Source: a virus
Length of the DNA: 25,106 nt
Virus record (IMG/VR): IMGVR_UViG_3300046008_000449
Coordinates: 1 to 25,106 of that record
Direction: 5' to 3' (one strand)
The notes below the pieces were generated by a model. It was not told the origin of the DNA, searched no databases, and worked only from the letters and a program-made list of their open reading frames with translations. The first letter of the stretch is position 1; each line of letters starts with the position of its first letter. Below, piece after piece: positions 344 through 13,409 of the stretch. The translations under genes and the position numbers were made by a program.

Positions 344-760
344 TTAGTACCTAGAATTGTTAGTTTGTTCACCAATTATATATTTTGGTATGATTGTCCA
401 CTTATTCTTTTCAGCAAATGGGATTATTTTAATCATTTTAAGATTAACTTCTTGACCATCAGTCACTTCTGGATTTAAAACTGAAATCAACTTCCAATCT
501 TTAAGCAGTTGTACAATAGTAAAATACCTAACCCAATCTTGATCTGTAATACTTGTTTCTTTGCCATCTAAAATAAACATAACTTTATATGGAACTAAAA
601 AGTATTTGCCGCGTTTGTGAAGCAATAAAACAAATGGGTATAGTTTAAAATCACCATCAGTGATACCAATGCGACTTAAAGTTTCTTTGATTTGTAAAAA
701 GCCTGATGTTGGTGTGAAAGAAACTTCAACAACTTCTCTTAGAATGTTTGCTGCATACAT
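344..760 (-). CDS. regA: RegA-like translational repressor
   Basis: Homologue of T4 RegA, which binds AU-rich translation start regions of early phage mRNAs and blocks ribosomes. Shared blocks include FLQIKETLSRIGI (T4 FLKVKETLTRMGI), a GKYFLVPYK-type strand, DGKE..ITDQDWVR, QLLKDWKLI (T4 WLLEDWGLI) and the C-terminal WTIIPKYIIG (T4 WKLVPKYTIG). The product is 138 residues against about 122 in T4. The extra length is nine residues at the N-terminus plus a short C-terminal tail. The ATG at 760 has no visible SD, and the codon matching the T4 start Met is GTT, so the exact start is uncertain. It sits directly upstream of gene 43, while T4 has regA directly after 43's neighbours in the 43-regA-62-44-45 cluster. 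Confidence 0.9.
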   Translation of the reverse strand: MYAANILREVVEVSFTPTSGFLQIKETLSRIGITDGDFKLYPFVLLLHKRGKYFLVPYKVMFILDGKETSITDQDWVRYFTIVQLLKDWKLISVLNPEVTDGQEVNLKMIKIIPFAEKNKWTIIPKYIIGEQTNNSRY

Positions 761-2412: not shown

Positions 2413-2442
2413 ATTATATAACAAATAATCTTTATTGTAAAC
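2413..2442 (-). promoter_or_regulatory. Early-type promoter
   Basis: GTTTAC (2442-2437), 18 bp, TATAAT (2418-2413). The -35 overlaps the last codons of the preceding gene. Drives the 347-residue gene. Confidence 0.85.
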
Positions 2443-2989
2443 CAATAGATAAGCTTTTACTTATTTTATATTCATTATTATGTTTAAATGGTTCATTCCA
2501 AAACATTGTTTCTTTTCTTTTCTTTTTAATTTTATTATCTATTTTAATATTTTCAATAGTTGCTCGTAGTGCATTTGTTATTTTCTTTTCACATGTATTT
2601 TCTGTTATAACAACTTGAATATAATGCATATATAATTCTGGGTGTGATAACATTACATCTTGTCCATATATTGCAATAGGTAATGCCTGTCCTGTGTCTT
2701 GGACAAAAGAGAATCTAGTTGTACTATAGCGATTTGCACCACCACTAAAAAAATTACCTACCTTAATATAATTTAATGAAGATTGCTTACTTAACTCATG
2801 TAAATATTCAACAATACATTTGTTTTTTGGAATTTTTAAAAACTCTTTAGATTTTGAAAATATTAAAAAAGACACATAACCACCTTCTTTAATATCTTTA
2901 TTAATACCGTTTAAGAAAAATGGATTATAAAGAACAATTTTATCTCTTAAATATAGATGTTGTTCTTCTGTTAACTGTACTATAGGCAT
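2432..2989 (-). CDS. Unknown protein, tandem paralogue A (185 aa)
   Basis: Clearly related to the next gene upstream (3052-3627). Both have a hydrophobic strand pair near the N-terminus (YVSFLIFS here, YVLFYIFS there), a YIKVGNF.SG / FIKIGNF.SG motif near the middle, and a DVMLSHPELYMHYIQVV / EVLLAFPDLYLHFIMVV block, followed by a lysine-rich tail. No known catalytic motif is visible. It is very AT-rich and has its own promoter. Start ATG at 2989 follows TAGAGACATAT, a modest SD. Probably arose by tandem duplication; function unknown. Confidence 0.75.
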   Translation of the reverse strand: MPIVQLTEEQHLYLRDKIVLYNPFFLNGINKDIKEGGYVSFLIFSKSKEFLKIPKNKCIVEYLHELSKQSSLNYIKVGNFFSGGANRYSTTRFSFVQDTGQALPIAIYGQDVMLSHPELYMHYIQVVITENTCEKKITNALRATIENIKIDNKIKKKRKETMFWNEPFKHNNEYKISKSLSIGLQ

Positions 2990-3051: not shown

Positions 3052-3627
3052 CTATTTTATTGCTTTTGCTAATTCCGGTAAAATAGTTACTTTATTTGTT
3101 AAAAGTTTAATTGGTTGATTCCATTTTCCTGGTGGTGTCTTAATTTTTTCTGCTTTATTATTAATTACTATTGGTGGATTCTTAATATTTTTTAATAAAG
3201 CAGCTTCTAATATAGCTTCGTTAATATTATTTGTTAATACTACCATAATAAAATGAAGATATAAGTCAGGAAATGCCAATAAGACTTCTTGTGAGTGTCT
3301 TGCGGCAGGACTTCTATTTCCATCATTCTGAATAAGATCACCTTTATTTGTGGCATGTCTGCCTTTCGAACCACTTGTAAAATTACCTATCTTAATAAAG
3401 GTGTGTTCTTTAAACTTTACTGTTCTCGCAAACTTATTTAATTTAGTAACAACACATTCTCTATCAGTTACTTTTACATTAAATTTTTCTGGTCTATCTG
3501 AGAAAATATAAAACAATACATAGGAACCTTTTTTTTCAATAGGTTCCATATTATTTGTATAGATTGGCTCATATACAATTGTATTTTTCTGAATTATTGC
3601 TTTTTGAGCAGGAGTGATAATAGCCAT
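3052..3627 (-). CDS. Unknown protein, tandem paralogue B (191 aa)
   Basis: Paralogue of 2432-2989, sharing the YVLFYIFS strand, the FIKIGNFTSG motif and the EVLLAFPDLYLHFIMVVLT block. Its ATG shares a base with the stop of the PARP-like gene (TAATG), so it is translated with that gene and may be its partner, regulator or substrate; this link rests on position only. The C-terminal third is Lys/Pro-rich and probably flexible. I do not recognise the fold. Confidence 0.75.
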   Translation of the reverse strand: MAIITPAQKAIIQKNTIVYEPIYTNNMEPIEKKGSYVLFYIFSDRPEKFNVKVTDRECVVTKLNKFARTVKFKEHTFIKIGNFTSGSKGRHATNKGDLIQNDGNRSPAARHSQEVLLAFPDLYLHFIMVVLTNNINEAILEAALLKNIKNPPIVINNKAEKIKTPPGKWNQPIKLLTNKVTILPELAKAIK

Positions 3628-6600
3628 TACTTACCAATCAATGTTAAGAATTTCTCTAATTCAACACGGTCATCTAAGAACTGCTCTGTTGAACTTACAA
3701 CAAATGCCAATGACTCAGCAGTATCAGAAATTACAACTACAGGACCTTGACCAGATAAGTCAACTCGAACATTCTTAAGGTTCAATTTCTTAAATTCCTC
3801 GAATGGTACCTTCTTATCTTTACCAACCGGTATTGAACCATCAATAAAGACATAAGAGATTGCATGAGTATTTGCCACAGAAGAAGCCTTTTTGAATGCT
3901 TTAAAGTTTTTAATTGGTGTTACTACAGACTCTGTCAAACCTGCTGCTTTTTTCATTTGTCGCATTTGAGCACCAGAAATAATCTCAACTTCAAATGCCT
4001 TCTTAATTCTCAGTTGTGAATTTGGTGTAAAGACACACCATTCAGGAGATCTAGTTCTACCATCATTAACACCAGCAGAACTATAATCTTCTTTTGAACC
4101 TAAGTTAGCATCCATCTCAAAGATATAACCTCTAGTACCAGTACCACGAGAATAGCCAGCATCACCAACATATTGACCTACTTTATCTAGTACATTTGAG
4201 AAGTAAATACCATCACCAAGCATACGACCAACAACAAGACCATCACCTGCATTAATAACCTTGAAGCCATAGCGTAAGATCATTGAAGCACCAATTGAAC
4301 CTGTACCATGGAAAGCAGGTGAAATTACTTCTGCTGTTGGATGTGCTTCGTTCCAAGCCTTAACTGAGTCAATCTGTGTAGGAATTGCAACATCATAAGC
4401 CTTATTAAAAATAAGTGCAATATCACCATGGTTGTATCTATTAAATGCATCATATTCAATTGACATTGCAACTAAATCTTGATGATCCTTAACAATAGGA
4501 GTAACATTCAACTTCTTAATTTCTGGTGGAGGTGGTAAGTTAGAAGTAAGTGATTTTAATGTCTCTGCTTTCTTACTATTATAGCCAGGAAGTGATGCTT
4601 CTGAAACAGGAATATCATTATACTTTAATACTTCAACTAAACGCTTATGGTCCATTTTAGCATAAGGTTTAATTGGTGAATCTGAATTAAAGATTTCATT
4701 CATTGCTATACCGGCAGTTGCAATCTGAGCCAAATGTTTAATAGTTGCTCGTTTAAGTCCAGGTCCCATTAAAGCATAAGCTTTTTCGGCTTTTGTTGGA
4801 TTAACATCATGAATTGTATAGATAGTATCTGTTAGTGCATTTGCTAATTGTTTTCTTGATGAAGCATCTTCTGCTTTAAACTCAAGCACTTCAGAAGCAA
4901 CATGTGTCATTCTCATCAATGTTGATTCAGATATCCATTCATCTAAGTTCTTATTTTTATCATTAATACGTGACAAATAATTAACCATTCTCATTGCAGT
5001 TGGAGTAAAAAGATTATAGCTAATGAACTTCTCAAAGTCTTCTGGAGTACCCACAAGCTCAATAGCAGTAAAAGCAATTGAAGGAGATATGTTACTATCT
5101 ACAAATGAAATTTTATCAACTAAGATTTTAGAAAGAATTTCTTTCATTTTAGGTTTAAAGAATTCCATTCTTGAGCTTTTTTCGTCTGTGCTGCCACTAT
5201 CAACAAAACCAGTCATATTATCTAGAGTTAAACTCTTAAGCATCTCAATAGGCAATGTTAAGACTAATGTTGGATTATAACGTAATAGTTGTCTTGAAAG
5301 TGCTGGGTATGAATCTAATAATGAAGCCTGTTCTTCTAATGTAAATACACCAAAGTATTTTGCAATAAATGCTGCAACTGTAGAATGATGATCAAGATTA
5401 ACTCCATCAGCTCTAGCTTTTGCGAGATAAAGATCTAAGAATTTCTTATCAAAAGGAATATTAAATTTAGTATTTGAAGCTTCAGCAACAATTCTAAGAC
5501 CATCTCTATCATCTAATAATTTAGTAAAGAATGTTGAAAGTGTATTTTCGTCAATACCTACAAGTTTATAGATTTCATTAATGAATGGTACTGTATAATT
5601 TCTATCAACAACAAAACTATTGATATCTGTTTCTCTTAATGCTTGAAATACTACAGTCTTAACTGCAGTACCAAGTGAGCCTGTAAAACCATCTATTTTT
5701 CTAAGTTTGCCAACGCTATTATAATCACCTTGTACTTTTAAAATTTGCTTTTTGATTTCAGGTAGACAACCTTTAACTATTTCAGTAAGTTCTTGTTCTG
5801 ATTTAGGATCAAAGAAGACACTTCTCTCAGTAAAGTCATTATAGTCATAGAAAATCCAAGCAGCAAATAGATCTTTATCTTCTGAATTAGTTTTAAGTAA
5901 CTCTAAGACTCTTGGTAAGATTTGTTTTTGGTGGACATCAGATAATTGTTGAAGTTTATATACAAAGTCTTTATATGAATTTTGATTTTTAAATCTATTT
6001 TCTAATAGTAAATCAAGTACACTGTCTGCTGATGTTGACCAACCTTTAGCTTTTAAGATTGATTCTGCTGATGTAATAACAGCCCAGTCTGCATCTGATG
6101 CAACACCTTTAGTTAAAATTTGTGCTGCTGGAGTACTTTGAACTACAAAACCAAATCTATTAAATGCCCTAGTTGCATTTTCAATCCAGATTGAATTCGC
6201 TGAAATAGAATAGATAATAGATTTAAGAGGAGATGAGTTATCTTGTTCTGCTCTTGAATATGGTGCTTGAACAAGACTAGTTGATTGCATCCATTCAGCT
6301 AATGCATTATTATACTTTTCATATTTTCTCTTAATATCATTAAAAGCAATTAGAGTCATTGGTGCTTTTTCAATATCAAGTCTAAGTTGTTTAGTAAACT
6401 CATTCTGTACAACTTCTCTTGCAGTAGCACCAAATGAATATGAAGCATTCTTAAATGTATTTTTAGTTGGAGGTAATTGTTCAACTATTGCTAATGTCTC
6501 AAGCGGATATACAGCAAGAAGTTTATTAATAATAATTCTAACAAAATTAGTATAAGAACTATTATTCTCCTTAGCTATTTTTAATACAGTTAAACTGTTT

Positions 6601-7487
6601 AGTGTAAGTTTAAAATCACTTACATTTGCCTCAAAGAACTTCATGAACTCTAGAATTGCAAATGATGTATTATATTCTTTACATAGTTTAGTTAGTGCTG
6701 CTTTACCATCTACATTCCAAGCCTTCTTATAGAAGTCAAGGTCGACTACTTTAGCCTGAACTACCGGAGGTGTTGGCGCAACTTTAGCAGCAACTGGATC
6801 TACCGTAGTAGTTTGTTGAGTTACTGGATCAACTTTCTTAGTTGGTTGTGTTGCTCGTTGTAATGCTGCAGGTACAGCTGGTACAGAACCAACATCAGGA
6901 ATATTCTTAAATGCAGAATATGCATGATGACACATATCTCTAAAGATACCAACAGACGGTGCATATTGTTTTAATGCTTTTAGATAAAAGATAACTTTTG
7001 TAAATTGAGCCAGTGTAGACTTACCGGACTCAAAGTCTTCGAATGCTGCCAAGATTGCTGGTGATGGTTTACATGCAGATGTTTTAACTTCTGTTGCCCA
7101 ACCTCGAATGATTTTCTCATCAAAATTAGATGAGTTAATAGATTTGTTCTTTAATAACACTAAGAACTTAGTAAGATTTGTTGCTGTAGTAGTTGTAAGT
7201 CCACCTGCTTCAGTCATCAATTTAACTGATAACGACATATCAGTATTTGTATCTGTAATGTTACTTAATTGATGTTTTTGGTCTGTAGAGAAATAAGCAA
7301 CAATTGGTGATTTACCTTGGAAGAAAGACATAATGCCAATCATACCAAAGAAGTTAAACATGAAGTAATTAGCAATATTAGTTTTATCTTTTAAGAAAGC
7401 ATCTTTTTCTGCCTGAGTTGTATAGACAGTACCTTCATTAAGTGGTAAGTTGTGATAATCATTAAAATTCATAGGGTTTTGATCCAT
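3627..7487 (-). CDS. Giant protein with PARP-like ADP-ribosyltransferase domain (1286 aa)
   Basis: Transfers ADP-ribose from NAD+ if active. The catalytic domain lies at about 990-1170 and shows the H-Y-E triad of PARPs: His in FHGTGSIGASMILRYGF (H1060), Tyr in LGDGIYFSNVLDKVGQY (Y1095) and Glu in SPEWCVF (E1149). The preceding IALIFNKAYDV strand and order match the PARP fold. Residues about 1-195 form an N-terminal domain, about 198-247 a Pro/Thr/Val-rich linker, and about 250-960 a long mostly helical region I do not recognise. A short SAP-like stretch (HKRLVEVLKYNDI) and PPPP precede the catalytic domain; about 115 residues follow it. Two starts are possible: ATG 7487, or ATG 7472, which forms an ATGA overlap with the upstream nucleotidyltransferase stop. 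Neither has a strong SD, so coupling is likely. Targets, and mono- versus poly-ADP-ribosylation, cannot be told. Confidence 0.85.
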   Translation of the reverse strand: MDQNPMNFNDYHNLPLNEGTVYTTQAEKDAFLKDKTNIANYFMFNFFGMIGIMSFFQGKSPIVAYFSTDQKHQLSNITDTNTDMSLSVKLMTEAGGLTTTTATNLTKFLVLLKNKSINSSNFDEKIIRGWATEVKTSACKPSPAILAAFEDFESGKSTLAQFTKVIFYLKALKQYAPSVGIFRDMCHHAYSAFKNIPDVGSVPAVPAALQRATQPTKKVDPVTQQTTTVDPVAAKVAPTPPVVQAKVVDLDFYKKAWNVDGKAALTKLCKEYNTSFAILEFMKFFEANVSDFKLTLNSLTVLKIAKENNSSYTNFVRIIINKLLAVYPLETLAIVEQLPPTKNTFKNASYSFGATAREVVQNEFTKQLRLDIEKAPMTLIAFNDIKRKYEKYNNALAEWMQSTSLVQAPYSRAEQDNSSPLKSIIYSISANSIWIENATRAFNRFGFVVQSTPAAQILTKGVASDADWAVITSAESILKAKGWSTSADSVLDLLLENRFKNQNSYKDFVYKLQQLSDVHQKQILPRVLELLKTNSEDKDLFAAWIFYDYNDFTERSVFFDPKSEQELTEIVKGCLPEIKKQILKVQGDYNSVGKLRKIDGFTGSLGTAVKTVVFQALRETDINSFVVDRNYTVPFINEIYKLVGIDENTLSTFFTKLLDDRDGLRIVAEASNTKFNIPFDKKFLDLYLAKARADGVNLDHHSTVAAFIAKYFGVFTLEEQASLLDSYPALSRQLLRYNPTLVLTLPIEMLKSLTLDNMTGFVDSGSTDEKSSRMEFFKPKMKEILSKILVDKISFVDSNISPSIAFTAIELVGTPEDFEKFISYNLFTPTAMRMVNYLSRINDKNKNLDEWISESTLMRMTHVASEVLEFKAEDASSRKQLANALTDTIYTIHDVNPTKAEKAYALMGPGLKRATIKHLAQIATAGIAMNEIFNSDSPIKPYAKMDHKRLVEVLKYNDIPVSEASLPGYNSKKAETLKSLTSNLPPPPEIKKLNVTPIVKDHQDLVAMSIEYDAFNRYNHGDIALIFNKAYDVAIPTQIDSVKAWNEAHPTAEVISPAFHGTGSIGASMILRYGFKVINAGDGLVVGRMLGDGIYFSNVLDKVGQYVGDAGYSRGTGTRGYIFEMDANLGSKEDYSSAGVNDGRTRSPEWCVFTPNSQLRIKKAFEVEIISGAQMRQMKKAAGLTESVVTPIKNFKAFKKASSVANTHAISYVFIDGSIPVGKDKKVPFEEFKKLNLKNVRVDLSGQGPVVVISDTAESLAFVVSSTEQFLDDRVELEKFLTLIGK

Positions 7488-8041
7488 TGCTTAAAAGATT
7501 CAACTAAAGATAAGCCTGCACGTGTTGCATCAAAGACTTGTTTTGCTTCAGTTGTTGTTATTCTTGTTGGTAAATTCTTACTAAAATTTATAAAGTCATT
7601 TGCTGTGGCATACTCACGCATTTTAGTACCAGAGATACCTTCAGTACGAGCACCAGATGACTTAGTTGTGATTGAATTGAATGTATAATTCTTCTCGTTA
7701 CCATTATATTTCTTGTAGTCAGTGCCTTCTTCGTCTCTATCATCACCAACCATGATTGTCACATCTGTGTAACCACTTAAATAGAGTTTACGAAGAGCAG
7801 AGAACATGTGGATCACTTCTTTGTTTGGATCCAACTTAACAGACTTAGGAAATAGTCTATGGAGAATTTTAGATTTAATGTTATAATCTAGTGGATTCTT
7901 TTTCTTATCTTGAGAGTGAGAAAGAAAAACAAATGGTTCTGCACCAATTCTTTTTGCCTCTATCTCAACCTGTTTAATATTCTCTTCATGACCTACAGTG
8001 AACGGATTCATGCGGCCAAATGTGACAACGGCTTTTTTCAT
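7469..8041 (-). CDS. HxGH-type nucleotidyltransferase (cytidylyltransferase/NMNAT-like)
   Basis: Member of the adenylyl/cytidylyl-transferase superfamily that joins a nucleotide to a phosphorylated substrate. GRMNPFTVGHEENI near the N-terminus (T15-V-G-H18) is the (H/T)xGH signature, and ISGTKMR (137-143) is the second ATP-binding motif. A central GDDRD segment follows a beta strand. Substrate is not certain: NMN or nicotinate mononucleotide, a cytidylyl acceptor or another phosphate ester are all possible. The start is at 8041: GGAAGA precedes it and ATGA overlaps the primase stop; the ATG at 8053 lies in the SD. It overlaps the PARP-like gene downstream, an enzyme that consumes NAD+, so a role in NAD+ supply is attractive but unproven. 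Confidence 0.85.
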   Translation of the reverse strand: MKKAVVTFGRMNPFTVGHEENIKQVEIEAKRIGAEPFVFLSHSQDKKKNPLDYNIKSKILHRLFPKSVKLDPNKEVIHMFSALRKLYLSGYTDVTIMVGDDRDEEGTDYKKYNGNEKNYTFNSITTKSSGARTEGISGTKMREYATANDFINFSKNLPTRITTTEAKQVFDATRAGLSLVESFKQWIKTL

Positions 8042-9045
8042 ATTTTCTTCCATTGAGCTAATTTCATTTTTGCATTGAGTCCTGAATACTGATTTTGATC
8101 AACTAACATTTGAACATCATGTCCAGCTAAGACCATATCATTTAAGTCTTTTTCTTGTATGTAATCAGGAAAGATAACTACTTTATATCCTTTATTTATT
8201 GCATTTGTAATTTTAGAGACTATGACTGGTGATCGTGGTTCATTATCAAACACTAACACTAAATCACAATCATTGAGTTTTATGTTTGCTCTTTCTAGTG
8301 CAGAGTCTGCTGTGGCAACTGCATTACTAATGAAACAACTATCAAATGGACCTTCTGTAACAAATACTTGTTTTGATCTGTCTAATCTATTTACACCAAA
8401 TAGTTTGACATCAGAGTCATCAAAGCCAATAGTTAAGTATCGCCACTTTTTATCTTTAGAGAAAGTTCTTATTTGAATGAAGTTACACGTACCATCAACT
8501 GTAACAAATGGAATAACGATACCTTCAATTTTAGGAATAGACAAGGTATAGTCAAGCCCGTAGAATTCAAAAAGGTCCATAGCCAAACTGCTAGCATCAT
8601 TAGTATAACCAAAGATTGAGACATCAGGGATTTTCCTATCAGTTAAAAATTTAAGAGCGTGTTCTGGAAGCTTCCAGTTAATATGTTGTTCCCACTTAGA
8701 CTTTAGGACTGTCTTAGTTTTCATATAAGACAAATCTTCTTTTGGTTTCTGTGTTGTGTTTAATGCAAATCTTTCAAGGTTGTATTCTTGATATAGACTC
8801 GGAACAAACTTCTTAAGGAAACCACCAAGAGGGAGTGAGATGCCACAGTTGTGGCAGAAGTAGAAAATGTTATTCGATTTCTCAAAGAACCAACCACGAG
8901 CTTTTGTTTCTGATTTTGCAGAGTCATTACAAGCAATACAACGACAGTTAAAAGACTCTGGTCCCTTTTGAGTAAATCTAGGGAGATGAGAACTTAATCT
9001 CTTGACATAATTGATCTGAGCAAATAATGGTAATTCGTTCGACAT
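8038..9045 (-). CDS. 61: DNA primase, gp61-type
   Basis: Makes RNA primers for lagging-strand synthesis with the replicative helicase. The N-terminal zinc-binding part has CIAC (36-39) and CHNC (64-67). A TOPRIM core follows, with FVTEGPFDS (the conserved Glu) and the acidic VFDNEPRS and DYIQEKDLNDM motifs. At 335 residues it is close to T4 gp61. SD AGGAATT precedes ATG 9045. Its own promoter (9099-9070) starts the primase-nucleotidyltransferase-PARP operon. The first codons form an inverted repeat with that promoter's spacer. Confidence 0.9.
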   Translation of the reverse strand: MSNELPLFAQINYVKRLSSHLPRFTQKGPESFNCRCIACNDSAKSETKARGWFFEKSNNIFYFCHNCGISLPLGGFLKKFVPSLYQEYNLERFALNTTQKPKEDLSYMKTKTVLKSKWEQHINWKLPEHALKFLTDRKIPDVSIFGYTNDASSLAMDLFEFYGLDYTLSIPKIEGIVIPFVTVDGTCNFIQIRTFSKDKKWRYLTIGFDDSDVKLFGVNRLDRSKQVFVTEGPFDSCFISNAVATADSALERANIKLNDCDLVLVFDNEPRSPVIVSKITNAINKGYKVVIFPDYIQEKDLNDMVLAGHDVQMLVDQNQYSGLNAKMKLAQWKKI

Positions 9046-11767: not shown

Positions 11768-12325
11768 ATGGAATTTATTCCTACATATCTTTGCATCAAA
11801 CAACATGCCATCACAGGCAAACTATATCTCTGTAAAACAACTAAGAAAGATCCAATAAAATATAAAGGTTCTGGTAAACATTGGAAATCTCATATAAAGA
11901 AGCACGGTAAAGAACATGTGGTTACTTTATGGTATCAATTATATGATAATGTATTTGATCTAGTTGCAGACTCACTTGGTATGTCTATAGCATTTAATAT
12001 TATTAAATCTGATTCATGGTTAAATCTTATTTTTGAATCTGGTTTACACGGTGGTAACAGAGGGAGAAATTCAAATGAAATTAATTCAAAGATAAGAAAT
12101 TCACTTCTTGGTCACAAATTATCAGAAGAAACAAAATTAAAAATAAGTAAAACTTTAACCGGACAACCATCTAAAAATAAAGGTAAACATTTATCAATAG
12201 ATACAAAGAATAAACTTTCTCTTGCATTAAAGGGAAAAATACACCCAAGAATTATCTGCGAAATATGTGGAGATAATATAAGTGAATTTATGAAAACAAG
12301 ACATTTCAATACTTTCCATCTTTAG
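11768..12325 (+). CDS. Homing endonuclease, degenerate GIY-YIG with NUMOD3 repeats
   Basis: Free-standing mobile endonuclease gene, the only convincing plus-strand gene here. The N-terminal part (TYLCIKQHAITGKLYLCKTT.KDP.KYKGSGKHWKSHIKKHG, read in parts) matches the phage GIY-YIG-like group, though the usual YFGKTT is LYLCKTT. LLGHKLSEETKLKISKTLTG and a second copy near 150 are NUMOD3 DNA-binding repeats. The C-terminus has a zinc-finger-like C164-x2-C167...H179-x4-H184. SD GAGGAG precedes ATG 11768. The substituted Gly leaves open whether the nuclease is active. It converges with, and overlaps by 20 bases, the FmdB-like gene on the other strand. Confidence 0.85.
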   Translation: MEFIPTYLCIKQHAITGKLYLCKTTKKDPIKYKGSGKHWKSHIKKHGKEHVVTLWYQLYDNVFDLVADSLGMSIAFNIIKSDSWLNLIFESGLHGGNRGRNSNEINSKIRNSLLGHKLSEETKLKISKTLTGQPSKNKGKHLSIDTKNKLSLALKGKIHPRIICEICGDNISEFMKTRHFNTFHL

Positions 12326-12501: not shown

Positions 12502-13029
12502 CTATAGATAGGTTAATGAAGTCATCATGATGAATTTCTCACCTGATGTTGGAGTTTCACCTGAGTGAGGGAACATCCATGTTGGAGGGAAGACAAGCAT
12601 AGTGCCCATCGTAGGTTTAACTTGTAAATCAAGATTAGTAAATCTAGTATAACCATCATTGTCATTTAAGTACATAATGAATGTGAGAAACCGCTTGGCA
12701 GAAGCATGATCAACAACATCAACATGAGGTTTGAAACCACCATCATTTGCCGAATATCTTTTAATTCTTACTTCTTCAAAGCCATACTCAGGAATGTAAT
12801 CATAAATGTTCAATGACTTAAAGTACTGAATAGCCAATTTGTTACACATCTTTGCAAAGTCTTTAGCCATAAAAGGTAAAACTTTATTAACATTAACTTG
12901 GTCAAACTTATAGCCTGGTGTATCATGATGTTCTATATTAGCTTCATCATTGAATAAGTCAATCAAATGCTTACAATCAAAGTCATTGAAGTAATCTTTT
13001 ACATCATAGACCTTTATGTGACTTTTCAT
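12502..13029 (-). CDS. 2OG-Fe(II) oxygenase, prolyl-4-hydroxylase-like
   Basis: Non-haem iron dioxygenase using 2-oxoglutarate and O2 to hydroxylate a substrate. In the 175-residue product the iron ligands are H102-x-D104 (PHVDVVDH) and H155 (FPHSGETP); K165 stands where the 2-oxoglutarate-binding Arg/Lys is expected (GEKFIMMTSL). The double-stranded beta helix is suggested by FLTFIMYLND and GTMLVFPP. Start ATG 13029 forms an ATGA overlap with the macro-like gene and has GGAAAG upstream; longer in-frame starts lie inside that gene. Such oxygenases are common in large marine phages; the substrate is unknown. Confidence 0.88.
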   Translation of the reverse strand: MKSHIKVYDVKDYFNDFDCKHLIDLFNDEANIEHHDTPGYKFDQVNVNKVLPFMAKDFAKMCNKLAIQYFKSLNIYDYIPEYGFEEVRIKRYSANDGGFKPHVDVVDHASAKRFLTFIMYLNDNDGYTRFTNLDLQVKPTMGTMLVFPPTWMFPHSGETPTSGEKFIMMTSLTYL

Positions 13030-13409
13030 AGATATACTTTCCAGTCTTCGGCAAAAGAACAATTACTATTGCATTCTCTAAAAAGAGGTGCAATCACATC
13101 ATCTGTGTAGCCAGCAAGACCACATCCAATTCTAGTCACCCAGAATTTCATTTTAGGATTAGCATGAGTGAACTCAGCAAAAGCATCAATGTGTGGAATA
13201 ATATCATACAAAGGCATTGTTCTTATATTCTCATCCTTAGTAGGAATAGCATAAGAGTCATGACTTAACCCGATACCTTTACCATATTGAGCACCATAGT
13301 TTAGTGCTGCCTTTGCCGCACCTGCACCATGAATACCAGCCAAGTTAGAACCAAAAACAAAAATTACATCATCTTCTGTTGGTTCAGTTCCGTCTTTATG
13401 AAATTTCAT
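13026..13409 (-). CDS. Macro-like conserved phage protein (127 aa)
   Basis: Belongs, from memory, to the phage family annotated as A1S_2505 non-structural protein. VIFVFGSNLAGIHGAGAAKAA has an Asn and a glycine-rich loop like the ADP-ribose-binding loops of macro domains, followed by SYAIPTKD and WVTRIGCGLAGY, again macro-like in order. That it binds ADP-ribose or a related nucleotide is inference. It overlaps DHFR upstream and the oxygenase downstream (both ATGA), so the three are co-translated. Confidence 0.75.
   Translation of the reverse strand: MKFHKDGTEPTEDDVIFVFGSNLAGIHGAGAAKAALNYGAQYGKGIGLSHDSYAIPTKDENIRTMPLYDIIPHIDAFAEFTHANPKMKFWVTRIGCGLAGYTDDVIAPLFRECNSNCSFAEDWKVYL

What the first reader, a model, noticed from the sequence alone, without database searches (positions are those of the whole stretch)
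3627..7487. 1286-residue phage protein with a PARP-like catalytic domain
Seen: H1060, Y1095 and E1149 in the correct contexts for an H-Y-E PARP. Known: T4 uses Alt, ModA and ModB, which are R-S-E type enzymes; an H-Y-E PARP in a replication cluster is different. About 1000 residues of unknown helical protein and a SAP-like motif lie before it. It may modify host or phage replication proteins or nucleic acids.
Basis: partly seen in the sequence, partly recalled or inferred. Interest (0 to 1): 0.75.

Follow-up and report, generated by a model that had tools for sequence, protein, structure and literature searches.

The report
Head-packaged PARP-type phage effector
A very large protein of a T4-like phage carries a PARP-type enzyme domain and bears, near its start and just after the enzyme, the cut sites of proteins packed into phage heads, so it is probably injected into the bacterium with the DNA, doing with a different enzyme what the Alt protein of phage T4 does.

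Summary
ORF 3627-7487 encodes 1286 aa. H1060 and Y1095 are invariant in 50 relatives and E1149 in 49 of 50. The predicted fold matches PARP1 (Z 16.5). The PARP domain of this phage family is already annotated (Aeh1, Moby, Ps15, OC), so that part is not new.

T4 Alt is cut by the head protease gp21 at ITE-6 and LTE-619|SV. This protein has LNE-18|G and LTE-1186|SV at equivalent places, each next to a stretch predicted disordered. E18 is one of three invariant columns in residues 1-930 across 30 relatives. An N-terminal [LI]xE is present in 44 of 45 relatives against 28% of control ORFs. In 24 of 40 relatives the gene has a T4 late-promoter-like box, as T4 alt does; the window gene does not. In one phage a true Alt-like R-S-E enzyme gene lies next to the PARP-type gene, and the two share a 66% identical, 200-aa N-terminus that includes the cut site.

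Best reading: an Alt-like packaged and injected effector whose catalytic domain is H-Y-E PARP. Packaging is inferred, and the target is unknown. The SAP domain is not supported.

The parts
3627..7487 (-). gene of the 1286-aa PARP-type ADP-ribosyltransferase (stop codon 3627-3629)
   Evidence: PHROG_18612 E 2e-110
7434..7487 (-). predicted N-terminal propeptide, residues 1-18, ending in head-protease-type site LNE-18|GT
   Evidence: disordered exactly to residue 18; E18 invariant in 30 relatives; [LI]xE in 44/45 relatives vs 28% of control ORFs
6903..7418 (-). N-terminal all-helical domain, residues 24-195, function unknown
   Evidence: pLDDT mostly 80-96; conserved in most of the family
6750..6884 (-). 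disordered Pro-rich linker, residues 202-246
   Evidence: pLDDT <50
4698..6740 (-). poorly conserved helical region, residues 250-930, low-confidence model
   Evidence: no SAP hit in Pfam; single helix
3975..4505 (-). PARP-type ART domain, residues about 995-1171
4308..4310 (-). H1060 of the H-Y-E triad
   Evidence: 50/50 relatives; aligned with the PARP1 HG motif
4203..4205 (-). Y1095 of the H-Y-E triad
   Evidence: 50/50 relatives; aligned with the PARP1 GIYF motif
4041..4043 (-). E1149 of the H-Y-E triad (PEWCVF, like NEYIVY of PARP1)
   Evidence: 49/50 relatives; at the start of a beta strand; correspondence to PARP1 E988 by motif, not by computed alignment
3930..3938 (-). predicted C-terminal head-protease site LTE-1186|SV (T4 Alt: LTE-619|SV)
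3630..3929 (-). predicted C-terminal propeptide, residues 1187-1286; linker 1187-1206 disordered, then a small alpha/beta domain
   Evidence: 27/42 relatives have an F..[FYHLW][LIVM].E site in this linker vs 0.8% of random segments
7469..8053 (-). nucleotidyltransferase-like gene overlapping the ART start by 19 nt; a CTS-tagged homologue directly follows the ART gene in L029-L032
   Evidence: phrog_3041 E 7.5e-48
8038..9045 (-). DNA primase (gp61-like), overlapping the nucleotidyltransferase gene
344..760 (-). RegA translational repressor; the homologue lies directly upstream of the ART gene in L010, L014 and L055
   Evidence: Pfam E 1.6e-24

Best explanation
It is a virion-packaged ADP-ribosyltransferase effector of a T4-like phage, laid out like T4 Alt but with a PARP-type (H-Y-E) catalytic domain. 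Shown: the PARP-like fold and the conserved triad; head-protease-type sites in the positions where T4 Alt is cut; T4-type late-promoter-like sequences before most relatives' genes; a gp21-type protease and gp23 capsid in the phages that carry it; and one phage in which the PARP-type enzyme shares its N-terminal module with an Alt-like R-S-E enzyme encoded next door. Inferred: the precursor is drawn into the prohead core through its N-terminal targeting peptide, is trimmed at E18 and E1186 by the prohead protease (which frees the ART domain from its C-terminal domain), is carried in the head, and is ejected into the cell with the DNA. There it uses host NAD+ to ADP-ribosylate host macromolecules before phage genes are expressed. 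The target (RNA polymerase by analogy with Alt, or defence factors) and mono- versus poly-ADP-ribosylation are unknown.
For: ART fold and triad. Cut sites: T4 Alt is cleaved at ITE-6 and LTE-619 (PMC5694885); the T4 sequence read here has LTE|SV at 619, and this protein has LNE-18|G and LTE-1186|SV. E18 is one of three invariant columns in residues 1-930 over 30 relatives. Model disorder ends exactly at residue 18 and starts at 1187. [LI]xE in the first 32 aa: 44/45 family vs 28% of 562 control ORFs; [LI]xEN 37/45 vs 2%; post-ART F..[FYHLW][LIVM].E 27/42 vs 0.8%. Several N-termini resemble the T4 IPIII targeting peptide MKTYQEFIAE (MTKNFKSFLGE|N, MKFKEFLELQE|N). Peptidase_S77 is found in 16/17 and Gp23 in 17/17 carrier records; their gp23 propeptides mostly end in LxE, like T4 FLTE-65|A. 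Late-promoter-like box (up to 1 mismatch) at -60..-22: 24/40 family vs 47/549 control starts; T4 alt itself has an exact one. L020: the adjacent Alt-like R-S-E gene (phrog_802 E 1e-30, PF03496 over its cut-off) shares a 66% identical 200-aa N-terminus (E 4e-81) that includes LNE|VFD.
Against: No virion mass spectrometry was found for any carrier phage in the papers searched. The window gene itself has no late-promoter-like box at the usual distance and overlaps primase-operon genes, which suggests middle or early transcription. In this protein the second CTS-like motif has lost its Glu (FKAFKKA); only LTE-1186 remains. Family members are related, so the counts are not independent events. LxE is a loose motif. 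The target and the activity are untested.
Confidence: 0.76

Rival explanations
1. An intracellular phage ART made during early or middle infection together with the replication genes, modifying host or phage replication proteins or nucleic acids, and not packaged.
For: In the window it overlaps the nucleotidyltransferase gene, which overlaps primase, and it lies near gp44, gp62 and RegA. It lacks its own late-promoter-like box. Relatives are often next to gp32, dexA, regA or gp43.
Against: Invariant E18 and the conserved [LI]xE sites at both ends. Late-promoter-like boxes in 24/40 relatives. Other relatives lie next to tail-tube or late-sigma genes. N-terminal module shared with an Alt-like enzyme in L020. 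T4 alt is itself next to the DNA ligase gene, not in the head gene cluster.
Confidence: 0.15
2. The toxin of a toxin-antitoxin pair with an ADP-ribosylglycohydrolase, as proposed for certain Aeromonas phages by Iyer et al. 2022 (PMC9503650).
For: In Aeh1 and phiAS5 the upstream neighbour is an ADP-ribosylglycohydrolase.
Against: Only 4 of 17 carrier records have such a gene at all and no window neighbour tested matched it. The family is about 930-1500 aa with head-protease sites, unlike small ART toxins.
Confidence: 0.04
3. A structural or scaffold-like virion protein whose ART domain is a catalytically dead relic.
For: Long divergent helical body. Activity is not tested here.
Against: The triad and surrounding motifs are the most conserved part of the protein.
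Confidence: 0.04

Closest known systems
PHROG_18612 / phage PARP proteins: Aeromonas phage Aeh1 ORF131c, Stenotrophomonas phage Moby gp067, Ps15 ORF165, Ochrobactrum phage OC p405, pf16 gp92
   Same: Same family: about 1200-1500 aa, C-terminal H-Y-E PARP domain; most share the N-terminal domain and [LI]xE site
   Different: 22-27% identity overall; already annotated as PARP/ADP-ribosyltransferase or hypothetical, but packaging was not proposed for this family in the papers read
T4 Alt (phrog_802, PF03496)
   Same: Layout: N-terminal head-protease site, long body, ART domain, LTE|SV site, C-terminal propeptide; an N-terminal module is shared with an Alt-like protein in L020
   Different: The catalytic domain is H-Y-E PARP-type, not R-S-E; no overall sequence match to Alt; about twice the size; N-terminal domain differs from T4 Alt
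PARP1/2/3 catalytic domain (ARTD, PF00644)
   Same: ART fold with H-Y-E; the conserved His upstream of the domain (H1020) aligns with the His of PARP1
   Different: About 16% identity; no DNA-binding zinc fingers or WGR detected by Pfam; fused to phage-specific domains
T4 internal proteins IPI-IPIII with capsid targeting sequence
   Same: Short N-terminal peptide ending in [LI]xE before the mature protein
   Different: Small internal proteins without an ART domain

Membership tests
PARP (PF00644, H-Y-E ART clade) | H-Y-E catalytic triad in conserved contexts | tested here: met
   50/50, 50/50 and 49/50 relatives
PARP (PF00644, H-Y-E ART clade) | ART fold similar to solved PARPs | tested here: met
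   Foldseek E 4e-10, VIA Z 16.5 over 181 residues
PARP (PF00644, H-Y-E ART clade) | Profile score over the curated cut-off | tested here: inconclusive
   This protein 16-18 bits vs 26.7; 39/41 relatives match, best E 1.4e-9
PARP (PF00644, H-Y-E ART clade) | NAD+-dependent ADP-ribosyl transfer | not testable with these tools
   needs an enzyme assay
T4 Alt-type head-packaged ART | R-S-E catalytic domain / Alt sequence family | tested here: not met
   H-Y-E triad; no phrog_802 hit. So it works like Alt at most; it is not an Alt family member
T4 Alt-type head-packaged ART | gp21-type cut sites near the N-terminus and after the ART domain | tested here: met
   LNE-18|G and LTE-1186|SV; cleavage itself not shown
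T4 Alt-type head-packaged ART | Late promoter before the gene | tested here: inconclusive
   24/40 relatives yes; window gene no
T4 Alt-type head-packaged ART | Present in virions and ejected with the DNA | not testable with these tools
   needs virion mass spectrometry
PHROG_18612 | Profile match | tested here: met
   E 2.3e-110; N-terminal part alone 1.4e-28
SAP domain | SAP profile match or helix-turn-helix fold | tested here: inconclusive
   No Pfam hit up to E 10; one helix modelled, following block pLDDT about 56
ART-ARG toxin-antitoxin pair | Adjacent ADP-ribosylglycohydrolase gene | tested here: not met
   No window neighbour scanned matched it; present in 4/17 carrier records

The most novel reading that the evidence does not exclude
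A phage head injects an active PARP-type enzyme, cut free from its carrier by the head protease, that builds poly- or mono-ADP-ribose on host machinery or defence proteins at the moment of DNA entry. The Alt delivery chassis would then accept interchangeable ART catalytic domains (R-S-E or H-Y-E).
Probability: 0.45. Interest if true: 0.8.

Novelty: new variant of a known kind. Interest (0 to 1): 0.62.

Why it matters
Phage PARPs have been listed as 'of unknown function'. If this family is packaged and processed like Alt, the unknown becomes a concrete prediction that one virion mass-spectrometry run can test: the protein in the head, cut at two named residues, acting in the first minute of infection. 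It would show that the T4-type head-delivery chassis has been fitted with two unrelated classes of ART catalytic domain. It would also identify a PARP1-like enzyme that acts on bacteria from outside.

Tried and rejected
SAP domain: no Pfam support up to E 10.

Fold of the N-terminal 930 residues: Foldseek against PDB gave only weak helical-repeat matches (best E 4e-3) and against viral models mainly its own family; no claim is made.

NAD salvage link: NadV was found in 14/17 carrier records and not in T4, but NadV-like genes match 1890 phage records, so this is suggestive only.

Late promoter for the window gene itself: not found at -60..-22; the 1-mismatch TATAAATT 105 nt upstream is no better than chance.

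The single-protein scan of viral contigs found nothing; the alignment-based scan found 53 loci. A search with the N-terminal domain alone could not be run because it is too variable.

Search for virion proteomics of carrier phages: none found.

Toxin-antitoxin reading: rejected for the family as a whole.

Full report
1. What is there. ORF 3627-7487 lies on the minus strand and encodes 1286 residues. The window is a 25,106-base IMG/VR virus record. Around the gene are primase, clamp-loader subunits and RegA, so it is a fragment of a T4-like phage. The gene overlaps its upstream nucleotidyltransferase gene by 19 nt and touches the next gene downstream, so it is probably co-transcribed.

2. The enzyme. 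Pfam PARP is sub-threshold for this protein alone, but 39 of 41 relatives match it, best E 1.4e-9. The family profile finds PARP1 in the PDB (E 4e-8), and hhalign against a PARP1 catalytic sequence aligns H1060, Y1095 and the upstream invariant H1020 with PARP1 (the PARP1 letters were supplied from my own knowledge). The AlphaFold2 model of residues 925-1286 (pLDDT 82.5) matches PARP1, PARP2 and tankyrase catalytic domains with Z about 16. Both computed alignments stop before E1149, so its equivalence to PARP1 E988 rests on the motif (PEWCVF...QLRIKK vs NEYIVY...QVNLKY) and its place at the start of a strand. In 50 relatives the three residues are 50/50, 50/50 and 49/50. An H-Y-E PARP-type ART domain is therefore well supported; activity is not shown.

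3. The family. tblastn finds 34 phage records (Stenotrophomonas, Xanthomonas, Pseudomonas, Aeromonas, Ochrobactrum) and an alignment-based scan finds 53 IMG/VR loci. The same kind of query found only two loci in 84,980 bacterial and archaeal genomes. All full-length members are about 930-1500 aa with the ART near the C-terminus. The PARP domain has been annotated before, is mentioned for Aeh1 as of unknown function (PMC10789625), and is discussed for Ps15 as a possible fitness factor (PMC9025141). Iyer et al. [quoted passage not shown]

4. Head-protease sites. T4 Alt is a 40-copy head protein, ejected with the DNA, and is cleaved by gp21 at ITE-6 and LTE-619 (PMC5694885). I read the T4 sequence here and it has LTE|SV at 619. 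The window protein has LNE-18|GT and LTE-1186|SV. In the models residues 1-18 are disordered and order begins just after them, and residues 1187-1206 are the only segment under pLDDT 50 in the C-terminal model. E18 is one of three invariant columns in residues 1-930 across 30 relatives. An N-terminal [LI]xE occurs in 44/45 full-length relatives against 28% of 562 other ORFs from the same loci, [LI]xEN in 37/45 against 2%, and a targeting-sequence-like F..[FYHLW][LIVM].E after the ART in 27/42 against 0.8% of random segments. Relatives are not independent, so these are descriptive contrasts. Several N-termini look like the T4 IPIII targeting peptide MKTYQEFIAE.

5. The phages have the right machinery. 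Of 17 carrier records, 16 have Peptidase_S77 (gp21) and 17 have Gp23. The gp23 propeptides that could be read mostly end in LxE sites like the T4 site FLTE-65|A, and the Moby scaffold protein carries 20 [LI]xE sites in 263 residues.

6. Expression. A T4 late-promoter-like TATAAATA (up to one mismatch) lies 22-60 nt before the ART start in 24 of 40 relatives, against 47 of 549 other ORFs. T4 alt has an exact one at -36. The window gene does not. This is the main evidence that does not carry over to the window itself. In L040/L054 the ART gene is next to the tail-tube gene and in L043/L046/L048/L060 next to the late sigma gene.

7. A shared chassis. In L020 (a 167.6-kb phage) the gene directly upstream of the PARP-type gene encodes a 1047-aa Alt-like R-S-E enzyme (phrog_802 E 1.3e-30; PF03496 over its cut-off). 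The two proteins share a 66% identical N-terminal 200 residues starting at LNE|VFDPDSAY (E 4e-81). This is the strongest link between the PARP-type family and Alt: the same N-terminal module carries two unrelated classes of ART catalytic domain. That module differs from the N-terminal domain of the window protein, so the link is at the level of the family. Alt-like genes were found in only 4 of 17 carrier records, so in most carriers the PARP type may be the only Alt-like effector; fragments and divergence limit that statement.

8. Mechanism. Most likely: late or continuous synthesis, uptake into the prohead core through the N-terminal peptide, trimming at both sites by the prohead protease, ejection with the DNA, and NAD+-dependent ADP-ribosylation of host macromolecules before phage transcription. 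Shown: fold, triad, sites, promoters in relatives, machinery, shared N-terminal module. Inferred: cleavage, packaging, injection, target, and the reason the ART must be freed from its C-terminal domain. NadV in 14/17 carrier records would fit recycling of released nicotinamide, but NadV is widespread.

9. Verdict. The interpretation as an H-Y-E PARP is supported but already known for this family. The better and newer reading is an Alt-like packaged effector with a PARP catalytic domain.

Noticed in passing
L020:1942-9260: An Alt-like R-S-E ART gene and the PARP-type ART gene lie side by side and share a 66% identical 200-aa N-terminus: an apparent catalytic-domain swap on one delivery module.
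   Followed up: yes
L013:5376-13393: Two PARP-type ART genes in tandem (1322 and 1312 aa).
   Followed up: no
L029:12175-12993, L032:10631-11446: A nucleotidyltransferase with a T4-like targeting peptide (MKSFSQFINE) directly follows the ART gene; the window homologue at 7469-8053 instead ends in LVESFKQWIKTL. Possibly a co-packaged partner.
   Followed up: partly
L025, L029, L032, L038, L043: Many neighbouring genes of different predicted function (kinase-like, unknown) start with a peptide like MKSFKxFIxE, as if these phages package a large set of proteins.
   Followed up: partly
window 13026-13409 (-): 127-aa protein (phrog_2072) with GSNLAGIHGAGAAKAA, looking like a macro-domain-type ADP-ribose binder; no Pfam hit.
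   Followed up: no
window 2432-2989 and 3052-3627 (-): Two apparently related small proteins of unknown family directly downstream of the ART gene; no Pfam hit at E <= 0.1, no PHROG hit at E <= 0.01.
   Followed up: partly
window 11768-12325 (+): The one clear plus-strand gene; NUMOD3 motif (E 2e-9), probably a homing endonuclease.
   Followed up: partly
window 12502-13062 (-): 2OG-Fe(II) oxygenase (PF13640, E 2e-11).
   Followed up: no
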